Below, one piece after another: positions 2,946 to 36,551 of a stretch of DNA of 64,000 bases. The DNA is from Chalciporus piperatus (Eukaryota; Basidiomycota; Agaricomycetes; Boletales; Boletaceae): assembly GCA_038093975.1 (NCBI GenBank), contig JBBPTG010000100.1:1-64000 (forward strand), given 5' to 3'. The position numbers were made by a program, and so were the translations under genes. Each line of letters opens with the position of its first letter. Within the stretch, counting starts at the first letter, position 1. Below the pieces are notes generated by a model. The model was given only the letters and a program-made list of their open reading frames with translations, ran no database searches and was not told where the DNA came from.

Positions 2946-3404
2946 CTACGCTATGTGACGGCCGTCGCCTTTCCAGTTCAGGGAGAGGCGCCAGGTGAGA
3001 ACACGGTCTCGGAAAACAAACCCAATACCCCAGGATGAGGAGGCGTCCACGAAGATTGGGTCGGGGAGAGTGGCTGGCGGCAGGAAGATGGAGCGGCCAC
3101 ACAGTGCGCAGGAGAGGCTTGAGCGCCACCAAGATAAGTCAGCGAGAACGGCGCTCGGGACCTTGCGACGTGCAAAAGGGGAAACATGGCGAAACGATGC
3201 AGCGAACCTGTACAGTGCCGGAAGACGAGAACGAGCCCCGTCGAGAACGACGGAGCAGTGGTTAAGCGTCCCGATCAAAATCTCACAATCACAATGAGAC
3301 ACAATCGAGGCGGAACACCATGCGTCAAGGCGGAGGAGATACTTGGATTTCTTGGTGCTGGGAAGGGACACAGTCTTGTCGGCGAGGTTCCAGATGAAGC
3401 CCAA
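2946..3404 (-). pseudogene. RNase H-like segment of the retroelement
   Basis: This frame carries SFPYLGFIWNLADKTVSLP-type connection residues, then SAVLADLSWWRSSLSC, followed by DPIFVDASSSWGIGFVF, the first RNase H strand with its catalytic Asp. It then reads LTWRLSLNWKGDGRHIA and stops at TAG where W is expected. No continuation of the domain is readable below about 2946, where the TCGGCC repeats begin. The element is therefore truncated inside or just after RNase H. Confidence 0.6.
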
Positions 3405-5032
3405 GTAGGGAAACGAAGTTGAGAAGTCGATAAACTTCTTCTCGGCCCAAGGCCAGCCAAGATAGGATGCGGTCTCCCATATAAGCGAAGCGTCATAACG
3501 AAACTGGGGGAGAGAGAAGTTAGAGCGAGCGCTCGGAAAAAAGGGATGGAGAGAAAAGAACCGACAGTGCGAGAGCCAGTGACGGGATCGATTACGGGAT
3601 AACGGAAGAATATAAAGTCGTCGGCCCAGTTGATCATGTCCTCGACAGACTTGAAGCGGTAAATGCAGGTGATGCCGTCTGCGCAGTGCCCGAAGATGCC
3701 CGAAGAGCTAGAGCATCCGAAGCAGCAACAATGGTCGGCATGAACCTTGCCGTTCCAATGTACACAAACATGCAGACGATCCTGCGGAGCCACAGGCATG
3801 CGACGATGCGCAGCATCGACATCGAAGACGGCAGCTTCAGATCCTTCAGGTGCACGGGCGACGAGGAGAAAACAGTCAGAGAAGGACCCCCAATCACACG
3901 GAAACGAGGAAGAACTGATTTCGGAGTTGATGGAGTGAAGAAGAGGATGGTCACGAGGAAAGGAATGATCTTGGATAAGGCGAGGTTTTGCGGTGACAGA
4001 ATGAAACACGACACCGAGAGGAGATGTGCGAAAAGGGCCGAAGGAGGCCTCGAAGACAGAAGGTTCGAAAGGAGCGGAGTACCGACCAGCGTCGATCTCC
4101 TTCTGGATTTGTGCAGTAATGAAATCGGAGTTTTCGAGAGAGGACTTATGATTTGCAGGCATGAAAGTAGTGGAAATGGTAGACGAAACACCTAGACGGA
4201 AGCCATGACGGAGACCATGGGGAATATCGGAGAAGCGAGACCAGACGGCATCTCCGCAAGCACGGAGTAACTCCTCCCATCTCTCGGGAATGAGGGGAGT
4301 CACGATTGGGAAGACATCAGGCGGAAGTGTGCCCCTGCGCATTGTGCTCAGAGGAACCGCACACGGTGCAGAGGTGGCGATGTTTGCACTCGACACCGCC
4401 GGAGGAACAACCGCGAACACCGTTCCAGTTGTAGCAATAAGAACGGCCCTGGGCATCGACCCAGACCCCCTTAGGGTTGCGGGAGACCCACCCATTGGAA
4501 GGGGAAGGACATTCCTTCGTGAGGTGACCACGGAGGCACACGAAGCATTTACCATGCCGCTCGGCGTTGTAAGGAAAGGGGGCACGGAACGATGTGGCAC
4601 CATGAGATGAGGATGCGGAGGAGACACTGGCAGAGGTGAGGAGGGAAGAGGAAGAGGAAGAAGCCACTGGTCCACTAGAGGACGACGAACTGGAAGAGGA
4701 CGGAAAGGGCGAGCGTGAGGCGAGCGGACGAAAGGAACTGTTACCACGGGCCAGAAGGGACTCCAAGGCGTTAAGACGCGAGGTAGTAGCCTCGAGGCGA
4801 GCATCGCGCGAAGCGTCCTTGGAAGAACCCAGTTGGCGAGAGCAGAAAGCGAAGAGGCTCTCGTGGAAATCAGCAGGGTTGTATAGCGAGGAATTTTGCC
4901 AGTAGACCTTACGAAGCTGGATGCAGTAAAGCTTCCAGGTCTCGAAATGGATAGAGAAATCATGCGAAGAAGTAATGCGAGAAAAATGAAGTTCGAAGGC
5001 AGCAGCGATAGCCTCAGAATTGGGGTTCGCAA
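3275..5032 (-). pseudogene. Reverse transcriptase of DIRS/Ngaro-like element
   Basis: The convincing part starts near 4330 (TLPPDVFPIVTPLIPERW) and includes TAQIQKEIDAGRYSAPFEPS, KPRLIQDHSFPRDHPLLHSI, RT motif A (FDVDAAHRRMPV), CCCFGCSSSSGIFGHC and the catalytic NWADDFIFFRYP. The N-terminal portion of the open frame (5032 to about 4330) is an antisense-like shadow of the gag frame. Downstream of FRYPVIDPVTGSRT a GT donor suggests a short intron leading to the next frame, YDASLIWETASYLGWPW, near 3500, and on to the RNase H part. The element copy is non-functional because of the stop in the RNase H region and the missing 3-prime end. Confidence 0.65.
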
Positions 5033-7272: not shown

Positions 7273-7640
7273 ATGAATCCCAACGACCCGCCAGATCAAA
7301 CAGAGGTTCTAAGAAACGAAAGGGATCAGTCCTGGAGACGACCACTGCAAAGCGCTGCAGAGTTGGTGTCAGCTAGCCCTATTCCCATCGTCTTGCCCCC
7401 CTCTACGGGACTCGAGCTTTTCAAGGATGCTGTTGCTGTAAGCTGTTCTAAACCGCTGACTGAACTTGTTTCATTCAAGTGTTGCAGCGCGAACCAGTCG
7501 CCATTGAAGTTGCCAAGCGTGACGACGCCTTGACCCAGGGGCTGGTTGAGGAAGTCGACAAGCAAAAGCCAAACCCAGACCCCGAGGTAGAGGCTGGCGT
7601 CGACGTCGAAGCGCGCATCTGTCGCTACGGCTGTCTCTAG
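7273..7640 (+). pseudogene. Copy A, ICRYGCL precursor lacking its signal exon
   Basis: Homology to copy C begins at 7361, exactly at exon 2, so the signal-peptide exon is missing. From there the reading is VSASPIPIVLPPSTGLELF, then a GTAAGC..CAG intron (7438-7487), then REPVAIEVAKRDDALTQGLV..., ending EARICRYGCL and TAG (7638-7640). An ATG at 7273 keeps the frame open (105 residues) but gives a hydrophilic N-terminus, so secretion would be lost. The second dibasic site of copy C (DKRE) is DKQK here. Despite this truncation the C-terminal ten residues are unchanged. I call it a 5-prime-truncated copy; a fused or re-promoted gene cannot be excluded. Confidence 0.7.
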
Positions 7641-9126
7641 AATATCAGTGTCCCAGCGGACGTCGTCTCTAGCCATAGCGGGGTCATCGGCCGCATGGTT
7701 TCTCGAGTCAACTGCTCCGTTCACCTCAGCTGAGGCTTTAAGCATCGTCCACTCGTTAAAGACTCCCGGTTTCTGGTTTTGTTTTCCGTCTTTGGTTAGT
7801 TCAAATTTCCAGACGGTATTCGTTCGTTTTTATATCACCGGTCTCATGTTTCGCGCTCTTTTATATCAGATAACCATCCCCTCTCCTTTTCTCTCGAAGA
7901 TCTCTCGTTTTTTTAGTGTGCGAGGCTGGTAGACCAGACAGTTTTCATTCTCTCGAGTCTCGTAGTCTCAGATCCCTGTAGCCTTGCCTCTTACATATCG
8001 GTATCGGTATTTTCCTGTATACTGCGTCTGCTAGTTATCGTTGTATCCATTTGGTCCTTATGCTTTACATGGCGTGTGTCTGAGCTTTTGTCCTCTCCAA
8101 CGGGTTTGAAAGACTCGGCCCGCAGAAATGGATTTCCCTGTGACAAGTCAACGAAGAGCGTATATTCACGAGGTTAGAGACAGGGGGGGAACCGCTTTTT
8201 TGTGTCCTGAGTAGAATGCACGGGCGCGCACGGAATGGTTCTGAAACAGTACACGCGTGTGTTCTAGTAACGCTCGCGCCTGCGACTCGTTACTCGATGG
8301 TTTGAAAGAAAGACCCCAAAACGAGGATCTCTTGTACTAGTACAGGTGACTGGCTGTTGCATTGCGTCTATACATAGGTGCAAACGCGGAGTCCATGGTG
8401 TACAAACGAAAGGCAACGTACATCCACATACCGAAGCGCATCCATCCAAACGAAGCCTTCCTCTTCTCTTCCCTGGGCAGCCTGGGGTACTAAGCCACAC
8501 CCACAGTTCCTGAGGCGTCCCGTGGCGGCTTGATAAACTTGATGGATGGCGTTGACGTCGCAGAGATACTCCCGGAGCTCCCGATGACTGCCCACGAGGC
8601 CTGAGAGGCAAGGGGAAAGATGTCGCCTTCAGAGAAAAGTCAGATTTGATATCTCTAGAACTAAGAACATTGCTTGACGACCTTGATCCCGAAAAGGAAG
8701 GTGCTGTAGTTCGATGTGTGTCTTGCTCGACCTCAATTTAGCAACTACCTTCAGTCCTAGGATCAGCTGGGCCATGGCAAAGGGATAACCAAGATAGGTC
8801 AATCATGCATCATGTATTATACTGGGGTTTATCGGGTGGCAAATGGGTTCCGGATGGTGGGACGAGTCCACGTTTACGACGTCAATGAACAAGCTAACAT
8901 CCAAATATGGTTTGTGCTTTCAACCACTTCACCCGAAAGGTAGGCTGAAAGGGAGAAGTTATGCCATACATCTCCACGAAAGTGTTTTAGTGGATATAAA
9001 GACGATTAGGTTGACCCTGGTGAGTCACTCGAACAACTCCACTCTTATTGTACTTTCCGAGTCTTCTGAGTAAAGCTCCCATACTCGCTCCGACTTTCGA
9101 AACAATAAGCTCATCCTAACATCGAC
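7641..9126. other. Spacer inside direct repeat 1
   Basis: This non-coding stretch of about 1.5 kb is conserved almost base for base with 18487-19981. It contains no convincing ORF. The 3-prime untranslated region of copy A and the promoter of copy B must lie here. Open frames such as 8264-8611 (minus) are not conserved as proteins between the two repeats. Confidence 0.6.
8995..9000 (+). promoter_or_regulatory. TATA box of copy B
   Basis: TATAAA in the context GTGGATATAAAGACGATTAGG lies about 130 bases upstream of the ATG at 9127. The same context precedes copy D at 19862-19867, and a similar TATATAAAG precedes copy C at 17902. Confidence 0.65.
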
Positions 9127-9465
9127 ATGTACGCTGCAAAGTTCACCGTTTTCTACGTCATCGCTGCTTTGGCCGCTTTGGGTGAGCCCCATCGAGCGTA
9201 GAGTTGCATGGGCGATTCACTGATGCGGGTGTTTTTAGTGTCAGCGTCCCCTATCCCTGTTGCTGAGCCTGGGGCTCTGGCATTGCCAGTCGCGAACATT
9301 GACGTCGTTGCTGTTAGTAGCTTTAACTATTTCTCAGTGGCAACTCGACTGACTTTGGACTTCCAGCGGGAGCCCCTCCCCGTTGCAGAGGCCGTCGTTG
9401 AGCGTGAGCCTACCCCCGAAGATGAAGACGTCGAGGCCAGGATTTGCCGCTACGGCTGCCTCTAA
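9127..9465 (+). CDS. Copy B, secreted ICRYGCL peptide precursor
   Basis: Three exons, 9127-9181, 9239-9312 and 9367-9465, encode 75 residues. Residues 1-22 are a signal peptide (MYAAKFTVFYVIAALAALVSAS). The pro-region is Pro/Ala/Glu/Val-rich with R-E-P at the exon 2/3 junction and a second E-R-E-P. The C-terminus reads EDVEARICRYGCL, with Cys70 and Cys74. The intron positions (phase 1 after the signal region, phase 0 before REP) match copy C, so A/C and B/D are related genes. Cleavage after the Arg of EAR would release a heptapeptide with a possible C-R-Y-G-C disulphide ring; that is inference. There is no CaaX box because the last Cys is at position -2. The ATG was chosen because it gives the only signal peptide and agrees with copy D. 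Confidence 0.8.
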
Positions 9466-10658
9466 AGGGCTGGCGATCCTCCCCGCTTCCCCCCTCCGGT
9501 CCTCGCTTCGTTTTTTTTCCTGGAGTCTGAGACTTCGTTAAACATACCCGCGACGACTCAAGACGTCGCTTTCTGACTCGCACCTTAATCCGACGCTCAT
9601 CCCGGATCTTATTTTTTTACATTCGAGTCTCTTCACTTTCCGTCACGTTTGGGTGGGGAGTTCCGTGGCCTGTATCCATGATTGCTAAGACAAGTTGGTG
9701 TATTTAGTCCTCCTTGGTGTCAGAAATTATATGTTGGTATCCCCATATCATGCGTGATAGTCGCGTGAGATGTGAGCGAACTCGAACTCGAAGTTTGAGT
9801 TCAACTTGGTAAAAAAGAAATCGTACCTCGGATTTCCTCGCAGGCTTTGGTGTTCAACGCAAACTCCAAGGTGACGCCCTCGGTTCCACTGACATCAAGA
9901 AGTTAACACTTTGGATGTGGTTTGCTGTCTGGCTGCCAGTTGGCAGGTTTTACTGACTGAGTACTAGGAATAGTGCAGTTTTTTACATAAGACGTTTTGG
10001 GCAGGTCAACCAATCAGAGCTCGTAAGAGGTTGCAGAGAGAATAACTTAGAAGTTACAACGCGGCTGCAGCTTTAGAGATAGGCTGGGCCTCCTCTAGTC
10101 TCCCCTAGGCAGTCCCAAGAGTCGGATGAAGACAGTCGTCCTCGCCTTTGCATGTCAAACGAAAACGCAAAAAGACTGGCTCCCCCAATAATGAACGCCG
10201 TTCAGGAAGATCGCTCTGAGTCCTACCTCGATCATCAAGCCGATGATGTATGGACTGAAGATGAGTCGTTCACGTTTCGCTCTCGCGTGTTCCTGAGATG
10301 AGTGCTGCATGGATTGTATCGAATATAATATTTCTTCACGAATGTCTTGCCAGTCCTCCTCGCCTTTGCAGTTACGTTGCTCTGTCAAACGAAACCCAAA
10401 AAGACGCTCCCCCGCAATTCTGTCAAACATCATTGACAGAACCTTCTCCCTGTATCTGTATAACGCTGATGGATCTTCAAGAAGTTCGATTCATGAATGC
10501 CAAGCTTTGGCGACAATATCATCCGAAGCGAACAAGACAATGTATTTAAGGTGCGCGTTTGCTCAATGTTTTTGTAACGATTCTTCTGAATCTTTCTTCC
10601 TCTGAATCAAAACCATCTCCACACTCGTTTAACCACAGTCACTCCTTCGATATTCATC
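9466..10658. other. Intergenic region with duplicated promoter of gene E
   Basis: Up to about 9898 this is the tail of direct repeat 1. From about 10140 to 10430 there is a local imperfect duplication. The motif CCTCGCCTTTGCA..GTCAAACGAAA..CAAAAAGAC..CTCCCCC appears at about 10140-10190 and again at about 10355-10415. A TATTTAAG element near 10541 precedes gene E by about 115 bases. No ORF of its own is supported. Confidence 0.55.
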
Positions 10659-11785
10659 ATGCGTCTTATCGTTCTTACTTCTCTCGCCCTCGCCCTCATG
10701 GCATCCTCTATGCCTATCTCCCTTCCCGTCGACACCAAGGCACCTACGTCCGTCGCCCCAGCTAGAAGTGCAACTGGTTTAGCTGGAGGTGCAGCTGGTG
10801 CAGCTGGAGCTGGAGGTTCGTTGCCCCAGAGTCGCTCTCTTGCAGGAAGCGGCCCAATCCAAGTGTCCGGTCTGGCTGGTGCAGTCTCTGGCGCCACCTC
10901 ACAGACTGAGGCACTCACCGGAACGCCAATCACTGGTACCAACACTGGATCGGCTTCTGGTCTCATCCACGGTGCCTCCAACGCTGGGGGCACGTCTGGC
11001 AAAGGAAACCTCGTCGACGCAGGCAACGTTGCTGGTGCAGTTCCCGGAATCGTTCCCGCAGTTCCTGGTGTCTCCGGCTCTGCTACGGGCACTGTCAACG
11101 GGGCTGTCACTTACCTCCAGAGCGCTGCTAATGGTGGTCCATCTGGTGCTGGAAACGGCGATGCTGGAGGTGCGGTGGCCGGTGCTCTTGGTCCCCTCTC
11201 TGGCGCAACCAGTGCGACTGGTGGATCTAATCAAGCAGTCAAGCGGGGCGCCGTTGGAGCAGTGTTGGATCTCCTTTTCGGTACCCCGCCTGAAGTTGCA
11301 GTGACCGGTGGCTATGATCAAGGTGCATACTCAAGCAGTGCGACTGGTGGATTTGGTCCATCTGGTGCTGTGAACGGTGGTGCTGGAGGTGCGGTGACCG
11401 GTGGACTTGGTCCCCTCTCTGCCGCAAGCGGATCTAGTGCTCAAGCAGTCAAGCGGGGCTTCGGCCTTTCGGGAGTGTTGCAGTCCATTTTCGGAGGCAC
11501 TGATTCAGGTGCAGGAACCAGTGCCTATGGTCAAGTTGGAGGGACCGGTGGATATGATCAAGGTGCATACCCCGAGTATGCAGCTTCATAAAGCATTCTC
11601 AAGCACAAAAGTAAGCATACATCGCTGCACTCGCTCATGAACACTGTTTTGATTGGCCATCAACAGCTGCTCTTGTAATGCAACTTCTACACCCAACGTA
11701 GTAGAACATTGCTATCTATTCGTTGTCGTGCAGAATATAATTCCTGTTGTATCAATTCGGAGTTGTGTGAAGTGCATCCCTGGGT
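10210..11785 (+). repeat. Inverted duplication arm 1 (gene E and promoter)
   Basis: This segment is repeated in inverted orientation at about 20945-22412. Shared stretches include the upstream region (GATGAGTCGTTCACGTTTCGC, and TTCATGAATGTCAAGCTTTGG-like sequence), the TATTTAAGGTGCGCG element, the ORF start, and the 3-prime region with CGTTGTCGTGCAGAAT. The arms differ by indels inside the ORF (see E and E-prime). Confidence 0.8.
10659..11591 (+). CDS. Gene E, secreted Gly/Ala/Ser-rich protein with KR sites
   Basis: This single-exon ORF encodes 310 residues and starts with a clear signal peptide (MRLIVLTSLALALMASS, cleavage near residue 18-20). The body is low-complexity Gly/Ala/Ser/Thr-rich with imperfect repeats such as ANGGPSGAGNGDAGGAV and LGPLSGATSA, which recur downstream. 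Two dibasic sites lie at residues 195-196 and 265-266 in the context QAVKRG. They are followed by hydrophobic, helix-capable stretches GAVGAVLDLLFGT and GFGLSGVLQSIFGG, and then by GGYDQGAY repeats. This resembles Kex2-processed repeat proteins of fungi, but I cannot name the family. Its paralogue E-prime lies inverted at 21154-21915, and a third fragment is at about 23394-23620. A TATTTAAG element lies about 115 bases upstream. Confidence 0.8.
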   Translation: MRLIVLTSLALALMASSMPISLPVDTKAPTSVAPARSATGLAGGAAGAAGAGGSLPQSRSLAGSGPIQVSGLAGAVSGATSQTEALTGTPITGTNTGSASGLIHGASNAGGTSGKGNLVDAGNVAGAVPGIVPAVPGVSGSATGTVNGAVTYLQSAANGGPSGAGNGDAGGAVAGALGPLSGATSATGGSNQAVKRGAVGAVLDLLFGTPPEVAVTGGYDQGAYSSSATGGFGPSGAVNGGAGGAVTGGLGPLSAASGSSAQAVKRGFGLSGVLQSIFGGTDSGAGTSAYGQVGGTGGYDQGAYPEYAAS

Positions 11786-12352
11786 TGTTCTATATGTTTG
11801 ACAGAATCTAAGCCGAGGATTGTCGCTCCATGCAATGCGGTGATGAGTCAGTACTTCAGTGCGCGGACATTTCAGGCTTTGGGGTAGTTTGAAATTTTCG
11901 GAGACATTTCACTCCTTCAGTCGCACAAGCTGCGCACACGAGGTCTGGTGCATGATTGGAGCACCATCTAGGCAGCACGATTGCTGTATTGAGATGGCAC
12001 GATTGGCCGTTGAGTCGGCGTTGACGCTCTCATGCTTTCACCGCCTTGGGATGCTGTAATAATCGTGACTCGTGTGACTGTTGATAAGAGTCTGACCGGC
12101 AGCGAGCCTTGCTGGCCGTGAAATTGATAAGAGGAAGACATGAAATGGCGCAGTACTGAAACTGTTTGTCAACCTGTTTCTGTCGACGAGGGACGCTGTC
12201 GTGTGCTGGCAGTGGAGATAACGGAAGTTCCGGAGAGACTTCCTAAAAAGGATATCGTCCTTGCCACCGCAGCCAAATAAAGCCAATTAGAGCCGGGGGA
12301 AGGTTAAGTAGTACGTTGTCTCGTCAGCACCTCTCTTTCTTATCCGTCCGCC
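11592..12352. other. Intergenic region between E and the protease gene
   Basis: The first 190 bases are the 3-prime part of the inverted-repeat arm. A 24-base motif at about 11903-11926 matches 7088-7111 with one mismatch. No ORF of convincing composition is present. The promoter of the protease gene presumably lies near 12250-12340; no canonical TATA is obvious. Confidence 0.5.
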
Positions 12353-13951
12353 ATGTCTCACTTCACCACTGTTGCTCTCGTGGCGGCGTCGCTCGCGTCC
12401 TCTGCGCTGGCCTCTCCCCTCTCCACCTCTCCTTACAACACACAGCGCCGTCCTTACCTCGGTGTCGCGCCTCTCGTACACACCGAGCACGTCCACGGCA
12501 CTCTCAACAACTCGTACATTGTCGTGTTGAAGGATGACATTCCCCCTTCATTGATGCAGAACCACATCAACTTCTTGCAATCTGCTCACGAGTCAGACTC
12601 TTTCCTCGGCGACGGTGTTGCTTCCGGTCTCCGTCATATCTATGACTCACACATCAAGGGGTACTCTGGTGAATTTACTGAGGGTGTTTTGGAACAAATA
12701 CGGGGGATGCCCGAGGTCGACTTTGTCGAGCGGGATCAAATTGTCCGCACGACGGACATTGGAGAACCCGTAGGCACTCAGAGGGGCGCACCTTGGGTAC
12801 GTCGACATTCCCACGTTCATCCCAGTCGACTCAACCTGACATGATCATAGGGTCTCGCTCGTATTAGCCACAGGAACAGACTCACATTTGGTACCTTTGC
12901 CAGCTACGTGTATAACCGTGAGGGTGGTGAGGGTGTCGACGTCTACATCGTTGATACCGGTATCAATATCCACCACCACGAGTTCGAGGGTCGTGCCGTC
13001 TGGGGAAAGACCATCCCTGCCAACGACGAGGATGAGGATGGTAACGGCCACGGTTCGCACTGTGCCGGTACCATTGGTTCCCACAAGTATGGTGTTGCCA
13101 AGAAGGCCAACCTCATCGCCGTCAAGGTTCTCGGATCCAATGGAAGTGGTTCAATGTCCGATGTCGTTGCCGGTGTTGCATGGGCTTCGGAACAGGCTCA
13201 ACTCAATGCCGCCGCCGCTCGCGCTGAGGTCGCCGCCACTGGCAAAACCGCGCGCAAGGGATCCGTCGCCAACATGAGTCTTGGAGGTGGCAAGTCGCCG
13301 TCATTGGACAGAATGGTTAACCTCGCTGTCACCGCCGGTCTCCACTTCGCTGTTGCAGCCGGTATGTGAATCCTTGACGTCCCTTCATCATTTTCCTCAC
13401 GAAACACAGGCAACGACAACAAGGATGCTTGTGACTATTCGCCAGCAGCCGCTGAGAATGCCATCACCGTCGCTGCCTCTACTCTTGGTGACGAGCGCGC
13501 CTACTTCTCCAACTGGGGTACCTGTGTTAATGTGTTCGCTCCTGGTCTCAACATTCTTTCCACGTACACCGGTAGCCCCACTGCCATCGCTACCTTGTCG
13601 GGTACCTCTATGGCGTCGCCTCACGTTGCTGGTTTGGCGGCCTACCTCTTGTCGATCTACCCTTCGACGACATTCAACCCCACCGTCTCCGCTAGCTTCA
13701 TTCCCGAGGCACTCAATGTCGAGGAGAACTATGCCTCATTCTACGCCATTGCTCGTGCAGCGCTTCCCTACTGGATGTCCCAGTACCTCCCTGCACCCGA
13801 CTTCTTTGCCCCCTTCCCTAAACCCACTCCTTCCAGCTTGACTCCCGAGCAACTCCGGGCAGCTATCGTTTCCCTGGGCACTCGTGGTATTCTCTCAGAC
13901 GCTGGCAAGGGTTCCCCGAACATTCTTGTTTTCAACAATGCTACCGCCTAG
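12353..13951 (+). CDS. Subtilisin-like serine protease (S8A, cerevisin/proteinase K type)
   Basis: Exons 12353-12796, 12851-13361 and 13410-13951 encode 498 residues. A signal peptide (about residues 1-20) is followed by an inhibitor I9 propeptide ([20 protein letters not shown] to [10 protein letters not shown]). The catalytic domain then shows Asp in VDTGI, His in [14 protein letters not shown] and Ser in [13 protein letters not shown], with the oxyanion Asn in AAGNDN. The phrasing [12 protein letters not shown] and [20 protein letters not shown] is closest to vacuolar protease B/cerevisin. It lacks the P domain and membrane anchor of kexin, so it is not itself a Kex2 enzyme. A C-terminal extension of about 80 residues follows the Ser loop ([19 protein letters not shown]...). 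It sits between two blocks of secreted precursor genes, which makes a processing or activating role thinkable but unproven. Confidence 0.93.
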
Positions 13952-14242
13952 GAGCATGGATAGACTGGCCTTGATATCCAATGCCATCGCCCATGGAAGC
14001 TTAGTTGGGGATATCTAGTTGTTGCTTTGCGTACTCTGTATTATAGATGTTTGAATGCTTATAATCGTGCCCCGCGAAGTGATGCAACGCTCCGCAGCAA
14101 CCAGACGGCAAGGGTGATTCTATATAAACAACCCAGAGCCTAACAACTGAGACTGTCTTGTACGGATGGTATGAAATGTGATTTGATCGATGCACTATGC
14201 ACTATGATCCGACCTGCGGGCCCGTTCCTCCAATAAATATGC

Positions 14243-15117
14243 TTACACCCAATTCGCAACGATATAAGCCTCCTGCCTCAACGCTGCCACCGCCTCGGCA
14301 TCCGAATCCCTATCTGCCTGCCACGCCCTCACCTCAATCGCTCTCGCGATCTCATGCAACGCCGTCGCGCACCCCATATGCGCCGCCGGAAACGCGCCTA
14401 ACAGACCTCGATGCAGCAGCAGCGTGTCCAAGTACGCGCCGTTGGTCGTCGGAAAGGCTGATGCAGCGGGGTAAGGATATGGGTATGGTGAGAGGACGGG
14501 GGAGTTTGGGGCGATTGAAGCGAGAATGGATTGGAGGAAGTGGCATGCGGGGAGGGGGGAAGTGGGGGGTGGTTGTTGGGTTAGGGGAGTTTGGATGGGG
14601 TGGGAGTCGGCGGCGGCGGCGGGGTTGGGGTGTGGATGCTGTTGGTCGGAGGAGTTGGAGTTGGAGTTTGAGCTTGATGACTCCCATGCGTCGGACTGGT
14701 GTGCGCGGGGTGAGCGTTTGGGAGGAGGTGAGAGGATGATGGAAGGAGAGGGGCACTCACGTGGTATGCTGGATCCTCCGTGCTTACATCGCGCTCGTTT
14801 GCATTTTGCGATACATACGGGACATAAGTTGGTGCTCCCGTCTCGGGAACCTTTCTCCAGGGATAGTCAGTGGATGAGCTCGGGGGAAAGGATGACGTGG
14901 ATGACGACCGACCTTGAACTTGCCCTTTGTTAGCGACATGGCTTGCAACAGTTGGCAGAGATCGACTTCAGGTTGATAAGGCTGTGGTGGGTGGTGTCAG
15001 TGAAATCATCGCTGGAACACGGACACGTCACTGCTCACCTGAATCCCGTACGGATGATGACTTTGGTCAAAGTTCATAACCATGGGTCCGACAGGAGATG
15101 TCATCTCGATATCCATC
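14243..15117 (-). CDS. Hypothetical protein, spliced, minus strand
   Basis: I do not recognise this gene. A minus-strand model begins ATG at 15117 (MDIEMTSPVGPMVMNFDQSS) and has a donor at 15038. Further coding blocks read VDLCQLLQAMSLTKGKFK and VPETGAPTYVPYVSQNANERD. A last long exon (about 14684-14243) begins SDAWESSSSNSNSNSS. It continues through Pro-rich sequence to NGAYLDTLLLHRGLLGAF, ALHEIARAIEVRAWQADRDS and YIVANWV, ending in TAA at 14243. The Ser/Asn, Gln and Pro-rich middle suggests a nuclear or disordered regulatory protein. A competing frame around 14780-14840 has a Cys-rich stretch, so the exact splice pattern is uncertain. Confidence 0.5.
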
Positions 15118-16419
15118 GCGGTCGTAGCGTTCGTTTTTGAGTCTGAGGTGACGGAACAAAGAAAAAAGGTGGGAGTAAAGAGTATAAAATGCGAGATAAT
15201 CGGTCAACGGTCACAGTTCATCCATCCGAGACACCCTTTCCAGTATGTATATGTACCTGTAACCGCGCCTCGGAACGAACATGCGGTACCGGGGCATTTT
15301 GCCTCATGTTTCCTGGCACGAGGCGTTTTCGGGTTAGTTCCGTCGTTTTGGGGGGGAGAAAAATAGGCAACGTGTACAACGTGTTCGAGCCGATTGTCAG
15401 ACGAGTGGATATTCGATAAGCGGGTTGGGGATCGGAGTGATGGAGGTGTGGGCACGCGGTATGTGGCTTGCGCGAGAAAGGGCAATGGGATGACAGGTAT
15501 AATTCTGGATTGGAGGGATGGAATGGTGCTGTGTAATCTACGAAGCTTAGAGCCCTAGGCTTGGGCTTCGACGCATTGAGTCATGAAGCATCGTGCATGC
15601 CTTGCAACTATGTATGTCAAGCGAGTGCAGGTCAGCTTGGAGGCTGTGATGGACTGAACGTGTGTGTGTGCCAGTGGGACAGGGTCCTCGGAGACCTAAA
15701 TCTAGAAAAGAGAGTTTGCGATCAGCAATGATGTTGGAAGATAACCAAAACAGACGGAAAAAGAGGAGTCAGAGAGAAGATTCATTCCTGTCCCAAAGAC
15801 AGGAATGCGATCATTCAGAAGCGTCTGGGTAGACCTTCTGTCAAACATGCGTGGTAGATACACTGTTTTTCATCACTGAAGTAAGGGTTGCAAAGAAGGT
15901 CAGACCGGTCATGAATACTTACCGGGGACAGCGAGTTGGGATCATCGAGCCTGTCCATGTGAAGGCCCGAGTCTGTCATGACCCTTCCCACGAGCCTTCG
16001 TCGTCACTTTGCCTGTCCATGACCAGGCTGTAAGTGTTATCGTATCGTATCGCATATTCTTACACGTTATCACGGGCTATCAGTGATACTATTACACCTC
16101 GCAACCTGTAGCAACCACCATGACGAACTCCGGCGACTCCAAGTGGCGCGCCGCTCTGAAACCATGCCTCTGTGCGTGACCCATCCATTTTAGTGACAGA
16201 CTCTCGGCAACAAGCCTGGAGCTAGTATAGTCTTCTAAACTTGAACCCACTCCAGCTTTCACAGATCCACCCATCGGTCGAGCATAAAACAAGCCTGTTC
16301 TCAACGGTTAGTTCCCCCTTTCACATTCTTGCTAATGTCTGATCTAGGTTCCTGTTCCTGCCTGTTGTCTCTCACAGTTGCCTCGTGGGCTCATCACACA
16401 TAAGCGCACGTTTCTGTGA
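15118..16419. other. Intergenic region, no gene recognised
   Basis: The first part is probably the promoter of the minus-strand gene ending at 15117. The rest contains no ORF with convincing composition. CGTATCGTATCGCATA at about 16038 is a short local repeat. No transposon signature was seen. Confidence 0.4.
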
Positions 16420-17382
16420 ATGTCCGAGCCTGCCATGCATGATCATCCAAAGTATGTGAGAGATGCGCGAGAAGCGTGTTTACAGTGTGATGCCCAGCGT
16501 ACGTTACGCGAGGATTCTGTGTCAAACGCAGTTCTGCTCACGCCTGCGCTCAGTGGAACCTGAACGCGATGACCCTGGGGGCCCGAGCAACGGCAAAGGC
16601 AAAACTGGGACGAGAACTCAACCATCTTCGGGCTCCGGCGAGGATGAGGACGCGCAACTGGATTCCGAGCTGGTGTCTGCTTGGACGCAGCGATTACAGG
16701 TTCTGACTGTTGTGGTATGTCGATGACGGTGTCTCCGTTTGGCTGATAACATACCTCTTCATCAAGACGGCCTTTTTGGCGGCAATCGACGGACAGCTGT
16801 TCTCCTTAACTGGGCTCCAGACACAGATCGGCGTTCCTGTAAGCACGCCTGCCCGTGAGGTCGTATATTCGTGTCTTGCGGGAGCCCTAATCTTCCACAT
16901 ATGCGCAAGTGAGTGTTTCTTGTTTTATTGTTGTTCTGACGTTCAACAAGGCTTCAGCCATCCTCGGTTATATCGCATCTTTCGCCCTTATCCGCTATCG
17001 AATCGTCGACGCCTGTGAGGAGGATGGGAAGGTTGGCGGAATTCTTTGTTCCCCCCCAGGAAGTGCAACGACTCGACCAGCACAGCGTAGTTCGCGCAAG
17101 ATTGTTCTCGAGGCAATTCGCCCCGCGCACTGGATCGCCACTTTCCTGCCACGACTTCGCTTCCCTTCAATGTCACGATCCCTACGACCCTCGCCACCGC
17201 CATTGTCGCTGTTGACGCGATGCTACTATACTACTCTTTTTCTAGCTTCTGTAGGATTCATATTGGCTCTTACCGGGATACTTACATATGTATGGGCCGG
17301 TTTGAGAATGCCGGTCGGGATTTTCTCGTCGGTATGTCTTGGTGTCGGTGTTGGTGCGGGTGTTTGGGCCATTTCGATGTAG
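16420..17382 (+). CDS. Four-pass membrane protein of unknown function
   Basis: Exons 16420-16498, 16554-16714, 16767-16908 and 16958-17382 keep phase and encode 268 residues. The N-terminal 70 residues are hydrophilic and acidic (GEDEDAQLDSELV). The core WTQRLQVLTVV-TAFLAAIDGQL starts the first hydrophobic segment. A second segment lies at VYSCLAGALIFHICATILGY, after a linker reading LTGLQTQIGVPVSTPAREV. A basic, Pro/Ser-rich loop (SRKIVLEAIRPAHW to SRSLRPSPPP) separates these from two more membrane segments (TTLFLASVGFILALTGILTY and GIFSSVCLGVGVGAGVWAI). Small proteins with this W.QRLQ..T..TAFLA..DGQL pattern are common in Agaricomycetes; no function is known to me. It lies just upstream of the second precursor block. 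Confidence 0.75.
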
Positions 17383-18107
17383 ATATCACCGTTTCCTGTA
17401 TTTTACATACTCAGCATGAGAATGTTATCACTGACTTGTGGGTTCCCAAGGGTGCGTTCTCTCATAGTAGTGGGCGTTGCCCACTCATACGCTTTGTTCT
17501 AAAAGGGGTCATGACATGCCCTAATTTGGTATGTGTTGTGTTTGCCAACCTTTCCTTTTCACTGACTCCCTTTGACCTGCTCGGCTGGGTTCTTTCAGAT
17601 ATCCTTTTCGCAAGTATCATATCGGAGTGGTGGTTGTGCTCACGTCCTTGCAAATGATCAGGTACACACAGCTGCCGCCACGGTAAGATCACTGTCTGTC
17701 AGAACACAGGCGTTTCGGACAGGTAAAAATACTGCCCTGTTGATCCCGGGCCACACCATTTGAAGAGGAATTCCAAACTAGTCGTCAATGGTGATGATAA
17801 ATGTTCTGGAACCAGGTACGACATCGCTATGGTCGGTCAACGGGAGTGGCGAAACTTGGCAACGGGACGCCTTTATCCTGGCTCACTAGAATGAAAGAAA
17901 GTATATAAAGACCTCCACTCTCGCCTTTGTCTCCTCGTGATCATTGGAGTTATCCTCTCGGTGCCGCACCGAATAGTCCAATATCATCTTCTCGTGCTCT
18001 TCACTGATCACTCTTCATTTTTCCCTCCTGTTTCGAGCGTTCATTTCCGGGAAGCCACTATCCCTTATAAGCATAAAGCTTTTTTCGCCGTCACTCGTCC
18101 TTGAAAA
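17383..18107. other. Intergenic region, promoter of copy C
   Basis: No separate gene is supported. TATATAAAG at 17902-17910 lies about 200 bases upstream of the ATG of copy C, followed by a pyrimidine-rich leader (CTTCATTTTTCCCTCCTGTTTC). Nothing is recognised in 17383-17800. Confidence 0.5.
17902..17910 (+). promoter_or_regulatory. TATA box of copy C
   Basis: TATATAAAG is followed within 100 bases by a CT-rich leader and then the ATG at 18108. It resembles the TATAAAG elements of copies B and D in sequence but lies outside the duplicated block. Confidence 0.6.
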
Positions 18108-18486
18108 ATGTTGTCCAAGTCCAACACCGTTGCAATGTTCTTCGCTCTCTGGCTCGGTTTTAGTAGGTTTCTTTGATGCTGCCCGCCACTCGTGATCTAA
18201 CGTGCATTTATTTCTTAGTGAGCCTTTTGGTGTCAGCTAGCCCTATCCCCATCGTCTTGCCCCCCTCTACGGGACTCGAGCTTTTCGAGGATGTTGTTGC
18301 TGTAAGCTGTTCTAAACCGCTGACTGAACTTGTCTCATTCGATTGTTCCAGCGCGAACCCGTCGCCATTGACATTGCCAAGCGTGAGCTGGTTGAGGAAG
18401 TCGACAAACGCGAGCCAATCCCAGACCCCGAGGTAGAGGCTGACGTCGACGTCGAAGCGCGCATCTGTCGCTACGGCTGTCTCTAG
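18108..18486 (+). CDS. Copy C, secreted ICRYGCL peptide precursor
   Basis: Exons 18108-18162, 18219-18301 and 18352-18486 encode 90 residues. The signal sequence is MLSKSNTVAMFFALWLGF followed by MSLLVSAS. The pro-region carries dibasic sites K56-R57 and K65-R66 (AKRELVEEV, DKREP), typical Kex2 sites. Residues 67-83 are acidic and proline-rich (EPIPDPEVEADVDVEAR). The protein ends ICRYGCL with Cys85 and Cys89. This is the most complete member and the best model for processing: Kex2 cleavage, then possible trimming or cleavage at the final Arg. The layout is reminiscent of alpha-factor-like or RiPP precursors, but there is one core peptide rather than repeats. The start codon was chosen for the signal peptide and the splice phase. 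Confidence 0.82.
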
Positions 18487-19981
18487 AGTATCAGTGTCCC
18501 AGCGGACGTTGTCTCTAGCAATAGCGGGGTCATCGGCCGCATGGTGTCTCGAGTCAACTGCTCCGTTCATCTCAGCTGAGGCTTTAAGCATCGTCCACTC
18601 GTTAAAGACTCCCGGTTTCTGGTTTTGTTTTCCATCTTTGGTCAGTTTAAAATTCCAGACGGTATTCGTTCGTTTTTATACCCTCAATCTCATATTCCGC
18701 GTTCTCTTATATCAGATGACCACCCCCTCTCCTTTTCTCTCGAAGATCTCTCCTTTTTTTAGTGTGTCGAGGTTGGCAGACCGGACAGTGTTCATTCTCT
18801 CGAGTCTCGTAGTCTCAGATTCCTGTAGCCTTGCCTCTTACATATCGGTATCGGTATTTTCCTGTATACTGCGTCTGCTAGTTATCGTTGTATCCATTTG
18901 GTCCTTATGCTTTACATGGCGTGTGTCTGAGCTCTTGTGCTCTCCAACGGGTTTGAAAGCGGACCGTCGCCCATTCTCACGAAGGGGTACAATGTACTCG
19001 GCCCGCAGAAATGGATTTCCCTGTGACAAGTCAACGAAGAGCGTATATTCACGAGGTTAGCAACAGGGGGCGGAACGGTTTTGTTTCCTATCGCGAGTAG
19101 AACGCACGGGCGCGCACGGTATGTTTTTGGAATGGTACACGCGTGGGTTCTAGTAACGCTTGCGCCTGCGAACTCGTTGGATCTCTTGTTACTAGTACAA
19201 GTGACTGGCTGTCGCGTTGCGGCTATACATAGATGCAGACGCGGAGTCCATGGTGTACAAATGAAAGGCAACGTATATCCACATACCGGGACCCATCCAT
19301 CCAAACGAAGCCTTCCTCTTCTCTTCCCTGGGCAGCCTGGGGGACTAAGCCACAACCACAGTTCCTGAGGCGTCCTGTGGCAGCTTGATAGACTTAATGG
19401 ATGGCGTTGACGTCGCAGAGGTACTCCCGGAGCTCCCGATGACTGCCCACGAGGCCTGAGAGGCAAGGGGAAAGATGTTGCCCTCAGAGAAAAGTCAGAT
19501 TTGATATCTCTAGAACATTGCTTGACGACCTTGATCCCGAAAAGGAAGGTGCTGTAGTTCAGTGTGGGACTGTCTTGCTCGACCACTGGATTTAGCAACT
19601 ACCTTCAGTCCTATCAAGCTGGGCCATGGCAAAGGGATAACCAAAAAAGGGTCAACCGTGTATTATCCCGGGGTTTATAGGTGGTAAATGGGTTCCGGGA
19701 TGGTGAGACGAGTCCACGTTTACGACGTCGATGAACAAGCTAACATCTAAATATGGTTTGAACCGCAAGACCAAATCCGGTCGTTGCTTTCTATTTGACC
19801 CGAAAGGTAGGCTGAAAGGGAGAAGTTATGCCATACATTTCGACGAAAGTGTTTTAGTGGATATAAAGACGATTAGGTTGACCCTGGTGAGTCACTCGAA
19901 CAACTCCACTCTTATTGTTCTTTCCAACGCTTCTGAGTAAAGCTCCCATTCTCTCCTATCAAAGCTCATCCTAACATCGAC
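18487..19981. other. Spacer inside direct repeat 2
   Basis: Conserved with 7641-9126 as DNA. No protein is conserved between the two copies in any frame that I could follow, so the open frames here are not called. The 3-prime region of C and the promoter of D are in this stretch. Confidence 0.6.
19862..19867 (+). promoter_or_regulatory. TATA box of copy D
   Basis: TATAAA in the same context as upstream of copy B (GTGGATATAAAGACGATTAGG), about 120 bases before the ATG at 19982. Confidence 0.65.
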
Positions 19982-20319
19982 ATGTACGCTGCAAAGTTCA
20001 CCGTTTTCTACGTCATCGCTGCTTTGGCCGCTTTGGGTGAGTCCCATCGAGCGTAGAGTTGCATGGGCGAATCACTGATGGGGTGTTTTCAGTTTCAGCG
20101 TCCCCTATCCCTGTTGCTGAGCCTGTGGCTCTGGCATTGCCAGTCGCGAGCATTGACGTCGTTGCTGTTCGTAGCTTTAAATATTTCTCGGTGGCAACTC
20201 GACTGACTTTGGACTTCCAGCGGGAGCCCCTCCCCGTTGCAGAGGCCGTCGTTGAGCGCGAGCCTACCCCCGAAGACGAAGACGTCGAGGCCAGGATCTG
20301 CCGCTATGGCTGCCTCTAA
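19982..20319 (+). CDS. Copy D, secreted ICRYGCL peptide precursor
   Basis: Exons 19982-20036, 20093-20166 and 20221-20319 encode 75 residues, nearly identical to copy B. The signal peptide is the same (MYAAKFTVFYVIAALAAL), followed by VSASPIPVAEPVALALPVAS, then REPLPVAEAVVEREPTPEDE and EARICRYGCL. Differences from B include G-to-V and N-to-S in the pro-region. The second intron begins GTTCGT rather than GTTAGT, which may weaken splicing; an alternative GTAGCT donor two codons later would change frame. Expression should therefore be checked. Confidence 0.77.
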
Positions 20320-21153
20320 AGGGCCGGCGATCCTCCCCGCTTTCCCCCTCCGTTCCCCGCTTCTTCTTCACTTTTTCCCCTGGAGTCTGAGACTCCGTTA
20401 AACATACCTGCGACGACTTAAGACGTCGCTTTCTGACTCGCACCTTAATCCGACGCTCATCCCGGATCTAATTTTTTTGTATTCGAGTTTCTTCACTTTC
20501 TGTCACGTTTGGGTTGGGTGTTCCGTGGCCTGTATCATGATTGCTAGACAAGTTGGTGTATTTTTAGTCTTCCAGAAATTATATGTTGGTATCCATATAT
20601 CATGTGTGGCAGTCGAGTGAGATGTGAGCGAACTCGAACTCGAAGTTTCAGTCCAACTGGTAAAAATCGTACCTCGGATTTCCTCGCAGGCTTTTGGTGT
20701 TCAACGCAAACTTCCTCCTCCTCCGAGGCGACGCCCTCGCTTCCACTGACATCAACCGAACTATCCGAGGTGTTACACGTAACACCACTGATCGATCGGT
20801 TAAGCGTCATAGGCGCGTAACGTTGAAGAGCATTGTGGGACGATTTGTGACCTTGAAGCAATACGCTCAAAGTATTGGCTCATTATCACATTGCATGGAG
20901 CGACAGCACACAATAAGAGTCTGTCAAACACATCGAACCAACTGCACTTCACACTAGTTCAAATTGAGGTGTCGCTTTCACGCATGTTATCAGTGTCACA
21001 ACAGGGATGAGATTCTGCACGACAACGAATATGTAGCAATTTTGTACTATGTAGGGTATAGATGTTGCGTTACAAGAGCGGCTGGTGATGTCCAGTCAAA
21101 ACAGTGTTCATAAGTGCAACGATTATATGCTTACTTTTGTGCTTGAGAGTGCC
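20320..21153. other. Intergenic region, junction of direct and inverted repeats
   Basis: The direct-repeat similarity ends near 20754 and the inverted arm begins near 20945. Between them lies about 190 bases of unique sequence with no ORF of note. The segment next to 21153 is the 3-prime region of E-prime. Confidence 0.5.
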
Positions 21154-22412
21154 TTATGCTTGAGCACTAGATCCACCAGTCGCACTGGTTGCGCCAGAGA
21201 GGGGACCAAGAGCACCGGCCACCGCACCTCCAGCACCACCGTTACCAGCACCAGATGGACCACCGTTAGCAGCGCTCTGGAGGTAAGTGACAGCCCCGTT
21301 GACAGTGCCCGCAGCAGATCCGGAGGCTCCAGGAACTCCAGGAACAGTGCTGGGAACTTTACCAGCAACGTTGCCTGCGTCGACGAGGTTTCCTTTGCCA
21401 GACGTGCCCCCAGCGTTGGAGGCACCGTGGATGAGACCAGAAGCCGATCCGGTGTTGGTACCAGTGATTGGCGTTCCGGTGAGTGCCTCAGTCTGTGAGG
21501 TGGCGCCAGAGACTGCACCAGCCAGACCAGACACTTGGATTGGGCCGCTTCCTGCAATGGTGCGACGCTGCTTGACGGATCCAGAGGCTGAACCAGAGGC
21601 GGAACCAGTCATGCCAGCATCACTACCACCGAAGCTACCGCTGGCAGTTCCTGATCCAATGAGATCGATTGTGCCATCAGCAGAACCAGAAACGACAACA
21701 GAGCCGGTCGCTCCCTTGCCAGGGAGAGCAACGGCGGGATCAGCAGGGGCGGTGACAGATCCACCAGCAGCGCCCAAGGCAGCATTTCCGGTAGAACCGC
21801 CCGATGTCAAGGCTGGGACAACGGACGTAGGTGCCTTGGTGTCGACGGGAAGGGAGATAGGCATGGAGGATGCCATGAGGGCGAGGGCGAGAGAGGTAAG
21901 AACGATAAGACGCATGATGAATGTCGAAGGAGTGACTGTGGTTAAACGAGTGTGGAAATGGTTTTGATTCAGAGGAAGAAAGATTCAGAAGAAATTCAAG
22001 AATCGTTAGAAAAGCATCGAGTAAACGCGCACCTTAAATACATTTTTTTGTTCGCTTCGGATGATATTGTCGCCAAAGCTTGACATTCATGAATCGAACT
22101 TCTTGAAGATCCATCAGCGTTGTGCACATACAGGGAGAAGGTTCTGTCAAGGATGTTTGACAGAATGGCGTGCATTATCGGGGGAGCCGGTCTTTTTGTG
22201 TTTCGTTTGACAGAGCAATTGACGTAGGCGAGGAGGACTGGCGAGACATGAGATGTGACCTGCGTGAAAATTACTTATAACTATTCGATACAATCCATGC
22301 AGCTGCCAGCACGCACCTGAACACGCGAGAGAGCGAAACGTGAACGACTCATCTTCAGTCTTCTTCAGTCCATGCATCATCGGCTTCACGATCGAGGTAG
22401 GACTCAGAGTCT
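20945..22412 (-). repeat. Inverted duplication arm 2 (gene E-prime and promoter)
   Basis: Reverse-complement match to about 10210-11785, including promoter, ORF start and 3-prime region. The ORF interior differs by one insertion and one deletion relative to arm 1. Confidence 0.8.
21154..21915 (-). CDS. Gene E-prime, secreted Gly/Ala/Ser-rich protein
   Basis: A 253-residue single-exon ORF on the minus strand with the same signal peptide as gene E (MRLIVLTSLALALMASS) and the same start PISLPVDTKAPTSV. It has about 70 extra residues after that (SGGSTGNAALGAAGGSVTAP to GSASGSVKQRR), including a basic KQRR stretch. It then follows E through the repeats to GATSATGGSSAQA. There TAA appears, and the DNA goes straight to the 3-prime flank of E. 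The deletion therefore removed both KR sites and the two hydrophobic segments. Whether the shortened protein is functional is unknown. Confidence 0.78.
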   Translation of the reverse strand: MRLIVLTSLALALMASSMPISLPVDTKAPTSVVPALTSGGSTGNAALGAAGGSVTAPADPAVALPGKGATGSVVVSGSADGTIDLIGSGTASGSFGGSDAGMTGSASGSASGSVKQRRTIAGSGPIQVSGLAGAVSGATSQTEALTGTPITGTNTGSASGLIHGASNAGGTSGKGNLVDAGNVAGKVPSTVPGVPGASGSAAGTVNGAVTYLQSAANGGPSGAGNGGAGGAVAGALGPLSGATSATGGSSAQA

Positions 22413-35252: not shown

Positions 35253-36551
35253 ATGTTCCCTCCATCTCAGCCACCACCAAGATTCGGTAGCGAGCGTATC
35301 CAATCCGCGGATGGTGCCGTTCAGCAAACCGACGTCGATGCAGCTCTCGCAAGACTCTCGGCAGTCAAAAAGGGCTATCTCCAGGATCCATTTATCGTGC
35401 ATCTCGTTCCTCGCGCTCAATTCCAACCAGCCCGTCCCCCTTTGATCAACGTCGGGACCTACGTTCGTTCAGAGTCCATAGATGCATTAGTAGATCAATG
35501 GTTGGAGTTATGTGAGAAGCAAAACACCTCATGTCAGATCGTAAGCCTAGGAGCGGGGAGTGATACGAGATTCTGGCGGTTAAACGTGAGTGGGCTTCGC
35601 TTCCCCTGGCTTTTGCTTTGAACATGGGCACCCATGATGGACTGCCAGTAGACAGGACCTCGCTCGCATGTCTTGAAGACGTATTTTGAGCTTGATTTCC
35701 AAGCTGTCACCATGAAGAAGGCGATGGCTCTTCGCAAGAGCAAGGACCTGAGTGCAGTTCTTGGTTCACCCGAGAGTATCACTACCAGTGCGTTAATTTG
35801 CTGTTGTCTATGTGGACGATCGACTCAAAAGTCCAAAGGCAAGGGTGGAACTGCACTTCACTCGAACAAGTATCACCTACTCCCCTGTGATTTGCGCGAC
35901 CCGCCATCTAGTTCGCTAGCACAACTCTTCGATGGAAAGTTGTCACCATCAGTGCCTACCCTTTTACTCTTTGAATGCATATCGGTATACATGCCCCCCG
36001 ACTCGTCCGCTGCCCTTGTCCAATGGTTCGTGGATCACTTTGTTTCCAGCGACACGGATGGGAGCGTTCTCGGAGCGATTGTATATGAGATGTTTGGTCT
36101 TCAGGATGCGTTTGGCCAAGTCATGATGAACAACTTGCGGGTATGCACGCGTTCGTTGTCAGTGTTCTAACTGGCTCGTCTAACTTCTTTTTAGTCGAGG
36201 AACGTATCCTTGCCTGGTGCTACCCCGTACCCCACAGTCGATTTACTCCCTCAGCGCTTCAATCAACATGAATTCACGTTTACTCACGCATTGACGCTGC
36301 GCGAGGTGAGAGAGAAATATATCACTCGCTCAGAACTCGAAAGGTTGCTGGTTTTATTCGTCGCGTTTGCGCTTTGTCTGATATTTATGTATAGGATATC
36401 TGGTCTCGAGATGTTGGATGAAGTCGAAGAACTGAATCTCGTGCTCGAGCACTATGCCATCACTTGGGGTGCTAAGACTTTTATGCCTGCGGAGAAGTCC
36501 CGTCTCTGGGAAGAGTGGGGCCTCAGATCACCGCCACCGTCTGATGATTGA
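35253..36551 (+). CDS. PPM1: Leucine carboxyl methyltransferase 1 (Ppm1)
   Basis: The protein begins MFPPSQPPPRFGSERIQSAD. It contains the SAM-binding features SAVKKGYLQDPFIVHLVPRA-like sequence, INVGTYVRSESIDALVDQWL and the GxGxD motif SLGAGSDTRFWRL. It continues through VLKTYFELDFQAVTMKKA, LFECISVYMPPDSSAALVQW and AIVYEMFGLQDAFGQVMMNN to the C-terminal YAITWGAKTFMPAEKSRLWE. At least four short introns are needed (for example after RFWRLN and after MNNLR). The enzyme methylates the C-terminal Leu of the PP2A catalytic subunit. An in-frame upstream ATG at 35199 exists but adds atypical sequence. Length (about 350 residues) fits the family. Confidence 0.92.

What the first reader, a model, noticed from the sequence alone, without database searches (positions are those of the whole stretch)
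7273..20319. Four gene copies with an invariant two-cysteine C-terminal peptide, ICRYGCL
Copies A (7273-7640), B (9127-9465), C (18108-18486) and D (19982-20319) all end EARICRYGCL immediately before the stop. B, C and D have signal peptides, acidic proline-rich pro-regions with basic sites, and introns at the same two positions. The layout (signal, pro-region, basic site, short Cys-bearing core at the very C-terminus) fits a precursor that is trimmed to a small, possibly disulphide-ringed peptide. I know of no described family ending this way, and it does not match CaaX pheromones, MSDIN peptides or borosins. A hormone-like or RiPP-like role is inference.
Basis: partly seen in the sequence, partly recalled or inferred. 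Interest (0 to 1): 0.9.

Follow-up and report, generated by a model that had tools for sequence, protein, structure and literature searches.

The report
Putative bolete secreted ring-peptide precursor genes
Four small fungal genes encode proteins ending in the same seven-residue peptide with two cysteines, and most relatives found in the bolete order end in nearly the same way, which suggests an undescribed secreted peptide signal.

Summary
Four copies at the stated coordinates end EARICRYGCL-stop (0.01 expected by chance). B, C and D have signal-like starts and two introns at matching positions; copy A lacks the signal exon and looks decayed. There are two types, long (A, C) and short (B, D); a 2.5-kb block was duplicated locally (87%). 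No further copy was found in the 35.5-Mb genome.

The family is unnamed, seen here in 14 genera of Boletales. Of 58 usable database relatives, 53 end [ILVM]C[RK][YFW][GS]C[LID] and 57 have Arg just before the core. Four Boletaceae proteins change the ring but keep both cysteines, which are the only two after the signal in 60 of 61 such proteins. The short-type pro-region is built of X-Ala/X-Pro dipeptides in register, as in alpha-factor. Kexin and DPP IV domains are encoded.

Best reading: a secreted precursor trimmed to a disulphide-ringed C-terminal peptide, probably a signal between cells. Processing, ring and function are inferred. Features tested exclude a CaaX pheromone, repeat-type KEP, UstYa-clustered RiPP, borosin and MSDIN peptide.

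The parts
7273..7640 (+). Copy A (long type): 5'-truncated, no signal exon; pieces 7273-7437 and 7488-7640; tail intact; probably decayed
9127..9465 (+). Copy B (short type), 75 aa; exons 9127-9181, 9239-9312, 9367-9465
18108..18486 (+). Copy C (long type), 90 aa; exons 18108-18162, 18219-18301, 18352-18486
19982..20319 (+). Copy D (short type), 75 aa; exons 19982-20036, 20093-20166, 20221-20319
7608..7637 (+). Conserved tail codons EARICRYGCL of copy A
9433..9462 (+). Conserved tail codons EARICRYGCL of copy B
18454..18483 (+). Conserved tail codons EARICRYGCL of copy C
20287..20316 (+). Conserved tail codons EARICRYGCL of copy D
7363..9898 (+). Duplicated block carrying A and B (86.8% identical to 18227-20755)
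18227..20755 (+). Duplicated block carrying most of C and all of D; judged parental because C is complete (inference)
12353..13951 (+). Subtilase gene, proteinase K type, with I9 propeptide and signal-like start, open through three exons read by eye, lying between B and C; possible but unproven partner

Best explanation
Each intact gene makes a small preproprotein. The signal peptide sends it into the secretory pathway (inferred from sequence). The acidic, Ala/Pro-rich pro-region is cut after single arginines by a kexin-like or other subtilase, and its X-Ala/X-Pro dipeptides are removed by a dipeptidyl aminopeptidase (inferred; domains of both enzyme kinds are encoded in the genome). Cleavage after the conserved Arg frees I-C-R-Y/F-G-C-L, which needs no carboxypeptidase step because it ends the protein. 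The two cysteines, the only ones in the secreted part, close a small ring that protects the peptide (inferred). The deep conservation of the tail in Boletales of different life styles fits a self-signal read by a conserved receptor better than a host-specific effector; the receptor is unknown.
For: Tail conserved: 53 of 58 database relatives match [ILVM]C[RK][YFW][GS]C[LID]-stop, 43 of 58 exactly ICR[YF]GCL, and 57 of 58 have Arg directly before the core. Among the 25 of 54 rows left at 80% identity, mean pairwise identity per column is 0.78 in the tail, 0.79 in EAR and 0.42 in the pro-region. Tail codons of C and D differ in 6 of 10 sense codons, all silently. Four Boletaceae rings vary in length (x5, x7, x9, x10) but keep both Cys. 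Exactly two Cys in the counted part in 60 of 61 proteins with such a tail, 57 of 58 database ones and 3 of 3 own. Short type: Ala/Pro at even positions after the VAR-like site 90 of 96 against odd 0 of 96 (24 of 25 rows), and after the signal 116 of 125 against 20 of 125 (25 of 25 rows); each is the top one of all 70 and 252 column choices. Kexin P-domain and DPP IV domain present. In Coprinopsis, two peptides from a KEP's non-repetitive C-terminus were found in culture fluid (PMC9769878, section 7), and on expression in Pichia several products appear to come from cuts after single Arg (same paper, passage).
Against: No transcript, peptide or bioassay data. E-x-R is not a classical dibasic Kex2 site. 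The core is preceded by acidic residues, not by X-A/X-P dipeptides, so dipeptide trimming would concern only the pro-region. The register is weaker in the long type: 33 of 55 even against 10 of 55 odd after the signal, 15 of 44 against 1 of 44 after VAR, with 428 and 239 of 5000 column shuffles reaching it. The junction around SPIP is about as conserved as the tail (7-residue window from position 19: 0.77), so conservation is not confined to the tail. Ring changes in Boletaceae and the divergent end of P0056 show that the seven residues are not fixed. No signal-peptide predictor was available.
Confidence: 0.55

Rival explanations
1. The tail is not cut at E-x-R; the active product is a longer acidic C-terminal piece or the whole small protein, for example a metal- or surface-binding secreted protein whose CxxxC end is its working part.
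For: No dibasic site next to the core in B and D. E66 is also conserved (0.84), as if the acidic stretch mattered.
Against: The stretch before EAR is poorly conserved (0.26-0.53 at positions 58-65) and variable in length, unlike a functional domain. Arg68 is invariant in the 25 non-redundant rows.
Confidence: 0.2
2. A small antimicrobial or host-directed effector peptide.
For: Small, secreted-looking, two-Cys, duplicated genes near another secreted-looking repeat protein and a possible transposon remnant. The Boletaceae rings have diversified.
Against: Near-invariance from Coniophora to Suillus is unlike arms-race evolution. Presence in Coniophora (a wood-decay fungus, recalled) argues against a role restricted to mycorrhiza.
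Confidence: 0.15
3. A RiPP whose ring is made by tailoring enzymes (UstYa-type or others) and not by a disulphide.
For: An aromatic residue (Y, F or W) is usual in the ring, and UstYa matches exist in the genome.
Against: The 5 UstYa matches lie on C42, C71 and C78, none on C100. Four Boletaceae proteins lack the CRYGC-type ring but keep both Cys. Of the 20 ORFs scanned (of 66 of at least 130 aa in the window), the only methyltransferase-type match was an LCM domain at 35673-36167, 15 kb from copy D.
Confidence: 0.06
4. A mating pheromone.
For: Alpha-factor-like dipeptides and a two-Cys core as in some ascomycete alpha pheromones; the same paper reports one alpha-like repeat precursor in a basidiomycete yeast, Trichosporon oleaginosus (PMC6339444 section 8).
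Against: That paper states that basidiomycete sexual pheromones are a-type only. The cysteines sit at -6 and -2, not the CaaX position. STE3 matches lie on C92, C236, C480 and C32, none on C100. No STE2 was found, though without a positive control. The peptide is near-invariant, whereas mating pheromones diverge between mating types (recalled).
Confidence: 0.04

Closest known systems
KEX2-processed repeat proteins (KEPs) of fungi
   Same: Secreted precursor with a pro-region and peptides released at basic sites; [quoted passage not shown]
   Different: No repeated cores; one core at the very C-terminus, after a single Arg.
Ascomycete alpha-type (two-Cys) sexual pheromones
   Same: Secretory route, X-Ala/X-Pro (STE13-type) dipeptides, short core with two cysteines (PMC6339444 section 8).
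   Different: Single core, three-residue ring in most members, no dipeptide spacer directly before the core, no STE2 found (no positive control), near-invariance over most of the order.
Cryptococcus Qsp1 quorum-sensing peptide, matured by the serine protease Pqp1
   Same: Basidiomycete secreted pro-peptide matured to a short peptide by a serine protease (PMC7537855, passages); here too a subtilase lies beside the genes.
   Different: No sequence relation was tested. Pqp1 is CNAG_00150 (PMC8092302 table passage), which groups in the pyrolisin subfamily (PMC5371821 passage), while the window protease is proteinase K-like.
CaaX (a-type) pheromones, MSDIN peptides, borosins, dikaritins
   Same: Small fungal ribosomal peptides.
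   Different: No CaaX, no MSDIN start, no fused methyltransferase, no UstYa match on the contig.

Membership tests
KEX2-processed repeat proteins (KEPs) | Signal sequence for secretion | tested here: inconclusive
   Hydrophobic N-terminus and A-x-A-like cleavage context by eye in B, C and D; no predictor available
KEX2-processed repeat proteins (KEPs) | Several repeats of the core between KEX2 sites | tested here: not met
   One core per protein in B, C, D and the relatives read
KEX2-processed repeat proteins (KEPs) | Dibasic KEX2 sites flank the core | tested here: not met
   Core follows a single Arg, mostly E-x-R; C has AKR and DKR only further upstream
Ascomycete alpha pheromone | STE13-type X-A/X-P dipeptides after the cleavage site | tested here: inconclusive
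   Strong register in the short-type pro-region, weaker in the long type, none directly before the core
Ascomycete alpha pheromone | Two conserved cysteines in the core | tested here: met
   61 of 65 rows (62 database, 3 own) end C-x(3-10)-C-x
Ascomycete alpha pheromone | Repeated cores in one precursor | tested here: not met
Ascomycete alpha pheromone | STE2 receptor in the genome | tested here: inconclusive
   No PF02116 match, but nothing rang in the controls
CaaX (a-type) pheromone | Cys at position -4 and no secretory signal | tested here: not met
   Cys at -6 and -2, signal-like start
Dikaritin RiPPs | UstYa enzyme beside the precursor | tested here: not met
   PF11807: 5 matches, on C42, C71 and C78 only
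Borosins | N-methyltransferase domain fused to the core | tested here: not met
   No Pfam match in the 75- and 90-aa proteins
MSDIN peptides | MSDIN-like leader | tested here: not met
   Leader absent in B, C and D
MSDIN peptides | Prolyl oligopeptidase B | not tested
   Not searched

The most novel reading that the evidence does not exclude
Boletales carry an alpha-factor-style peptide hormone system independent of mating: a secreted, protease- and dipeptidase-matured, disulphide-ringed heptapeptide kept almost unchanged from Coniophora to Suillus, with a switched ring in Boletaceae that implies a co-evolving receptor, and with the neighbouring subtilase as its maturation protease.
Probability: 0.3. 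Interest if true: 0.85.

Novelty: new variant of a known kind. Interest (0 to 1): 0.66.

Why it matters
Non-mating peptide hormones are, to my knowledge, scarcely known in mushrooms, and most fungal GPCRs are orphans (PMC13308352, abstract). A peptide kept almost unchanged across much of an order is a concrete ligand candidate: seven residues, synthesisable, with natural ring variants for testing receptor specificity.

Tried and rejected
Further members in the genome: a C-terminal C-x3-C-x pattern gave 47 matches (28 forward, 19 reverse) against 59 for the reversed control (33 and 26), so most are chance. Of the 30 held as loci, 18 (copy A among them) end in a true stop and were read 60 codons upstream; apart from copy A none had a precursor-like context. 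The other 12 end in TGG. 17 were not held as loci: 3 are copies B, C and D, and 14 were not read. The full short precursor found only the four copies. These searches read six frames without splicing, and counts are lower bounds by the tool's own statement.

Galerina P0062 (Agaricales) has the same layout and ends ICGSYQCI, but E = 0.08 and its own search found nothing else; kept as a weak lead. Searches listed 32 and 62 proteins, 63 distinct; only the 7994 candidates sharing most words were scored. I dropped five before the counts: P0063 (E = 8.1, chance); P0050, P0053 and P0055 (gene models that, read by eye, run into introns and show no tail); and P0056 (Suillus ampliporus, with the family's start but a different end, two Cys nine residues apart and four residues after). 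P0056 counts against strict conservation. Of the 58 kept, 43 carry an organism name (42 in genera I know as Boletales, 1 Galerina) and 15 have none. Only Coniophora, Chiua and Galerina were looked up.

A first dipeptide test used a faulty site pattern (11 of 25 short-type rows caught after VAR, some at the wrong site). It was redone (24 of 25; P0041 missed). The tree (32 rows) supports the short type as a clade (100/99) but does not show the long type as one clade: W_C joins Paxillus and Hydnomerulius (95/97), the Suillus and Rhizopogon long forms stand apart (99/98), deep forks are weak, and the program warns of long branches meeting. 'Long type' therefore rests on shared sequence such as SPIPIVLPPS, not on the tree.

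Literature: ICRYGCL, ICRFGCL, CRYGCL and CRFGCL were found in 0 papers. Six topic searches showed 14 of 14, 19 of 20, 12 of 46, 12 of 131, 10 of 49 and 12 of 718 papers; none of the listed titles or abstract starts describes this family.
Full report
What is there. The window is bases 1-64000 of contig C100 of a 35.5-Mb, 484-contig genome, evidently a basidiomycete of the order Boletales from its best relatives (inference). Four gene copies end EARICRYGCL immediately before the stop, at the coordinates given (4 matches without mismatch, 0.01 expected). Spliced, B and D are 75 aa and C is 90 aa; intron 1 (phase 1) and intron 2 (phase 0, at VVA|RE) are in matching places. Copy A keeps intron 2 and the tail but has a foreign 5' end: its similarity to C starts at 7363, within exon 2, so it lacks the signal peptide. 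An ORF that looks to me like a reverse transcriptase lies 2.2 kb upstream of A; Pfam gave no match for it.

History. A/C are one type (long), B/D another (short). The block 7363-9898 equals 18227-20755 at 86.8%, so C-D is most simply the parent and A-B the copy. In this comparison the A/C tail shows 0 of 33 differences, against 9 of 101 sites plus 18 gap columns in the pro-region of exon 3. B and D differ in 7 codons: 2 change the residue (both outside the tail) and 5 are silent (2 of them in the tail). Between C and D, 6 of 10 tail sense codons differ, all silently. That is what purifying selection on the tail would give.

Family. Protein searches (63 distinct proteins at E <= 10) leave 58 usable ones (the five dropped are told under Tried and rejected). 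Those with names fall in 14 genera (Melanogaster, Paxillus, Gyrodon, Hydnomerulius, Phlebopus, Rhizopogon, Suillus, Chiua, Astraeus, Imleria, Pisolithus, Boletus, Scleroderma, Coniophora) plus Galerina. Both types occur outside the window. So the long-short pair seems an old linked arrangement (inference). Database models P0017, P0053 and P0055 appear to run through introns at the same two places (by eye). The tree supports the short type as a clade but not the long type as one.

The tail. Last seven residues in the 58: ICRYGCL 33, ICRFGCL 10, VCRYGCL 3, ICRYGCD 2, and ten single forms. Variants in Boletaceae: ICGHGSSSTCL (Chiua), CRRQMGGMSNCL and CRRQMGGSNPNCL (Imleria), ICRRFESCY (Boletus reticuloceps); a fifth Boletaceae row, B. 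edulis P0053, shows no tail because its model runs on. In 61 of 65 rows (62 database and 3 own) the protein ends C-x(3-10)-C-x. In 60 of those 61 these are the only cysteines in the counted part; the exception is P0059, a model that seems to start in an intron. Arg directly precedes the core in 57 of 58 (Galerina is the exception). Mean column identity in 25 non-redundant rows: signal 0.48, SPIP 0.83, pro-region 0.42, EAR 0.79, tail 0.78; the best 7-residue window is 68-74 (0.82), and the window at 19-25 reaches 0.77.

The pro-region. In 24 of 25 short-type proteins the eight residues after the VAR/LAR-like site read X-[AP] up to four times: Ala/Pro at even places 90 of 96, at odd places 0 of 96, the best of all 70 column choices. 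After the signal the figures are 116 of 125 and 20 of 125, the best of 252. These rows are related, so this describes the family and is not a count of independent events. The long type shows it less. X-Ala/X-Pro after a Kex2 site is the STE13 signature of alpha pheromones (PMC6339444 section 8; PMC9769878 passages). Promelittin is another such case (recalled). A kexin P-domain (C2) and a DPP IV domain (C65) are in the genome.

Neighbourhood. Between B and C lies a subtilase gene (12353-13951; introns read by eye) with an I9 propeptide, closest to proteinase K among solved structures. It is the only PF05922 match and one of two PF00082 matches found in the genome, the other lying on C2 just before the kexin P-domain (unspliced search, lower bounds). 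It may be the ordinary vacuolar protease B (recalled similarity) and the adjacency may be chance; but in Cryptococcus a serine protease matures a secreted peptide (PMC7537855, passages), so a partnership is worth testing. No UstYa match is on C100. STE3 matches are on C92, C236, C480 and C32.

Mechanism. Shown: gene structures, conservation, silent-only tail changes, two-Cys rule, dipeptide register, presence of the enzyme domains. Inferred: secretion, cleavage after the Arg, ring closure, signalling. The constancy of a seven-residue tail behind a fast-changing pro-region is what a ligand with a conserved receptor would look like. The Boletaceae changes, which spare both cysteines, argue for a disulphide ring and against a crosslink that needs the aromatic residue.

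Status. No Pfam match in the members scanned (2, 6). No paper in the held library contains the tail strings, and none of the papers listed by six topic searches describes the family by title or abstract start (lists capped). As a kind (secreted peptide precursor with basic and dipeptide processing) it is known; as a family and architecture (single C-terminal ring core, monobasic, found through much of an order) I found no description. Hence: new variant of a known kind.

Noticed in passing
10659-11591 (+) and 21154-21915 (-): A secreted-looking Gly/Ala/Ser-rich protein with two AVKRG repeats (a KEP-like layout) beside the array, with a partial inverted copy (95% over 403 bases); bases 10827-11229 match only 4 places, all on this contig; no Pfam match.
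   Followed up: partly
12353-13951 (+): Proteinase K-type subtilase inside the peptide array; the only I9-propeptide match detected in the genome.
   Followed up: partly
3275-5032 (-): ORF that looks by eye like a reverse transcriptase of a retroelement, near the truncated copy A; no Pfam match; class not tested.
   Followed up: no
57046-59409 (+): ORF with a Transposase family tnp2 match.
   Followed up: no
93-997: Overlapping self-matches at about 70-73% identity, like a divergent tandem repeat.
   Followed up: no
P0062 (Galerina marginata, Agaricales): 59-aa protein with the same SPxP/VVAREP layout ending ICGSYQCI, without Arg before the core; a possible distant member outside Boletales.
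   Followed up: partly
   Followed up: no
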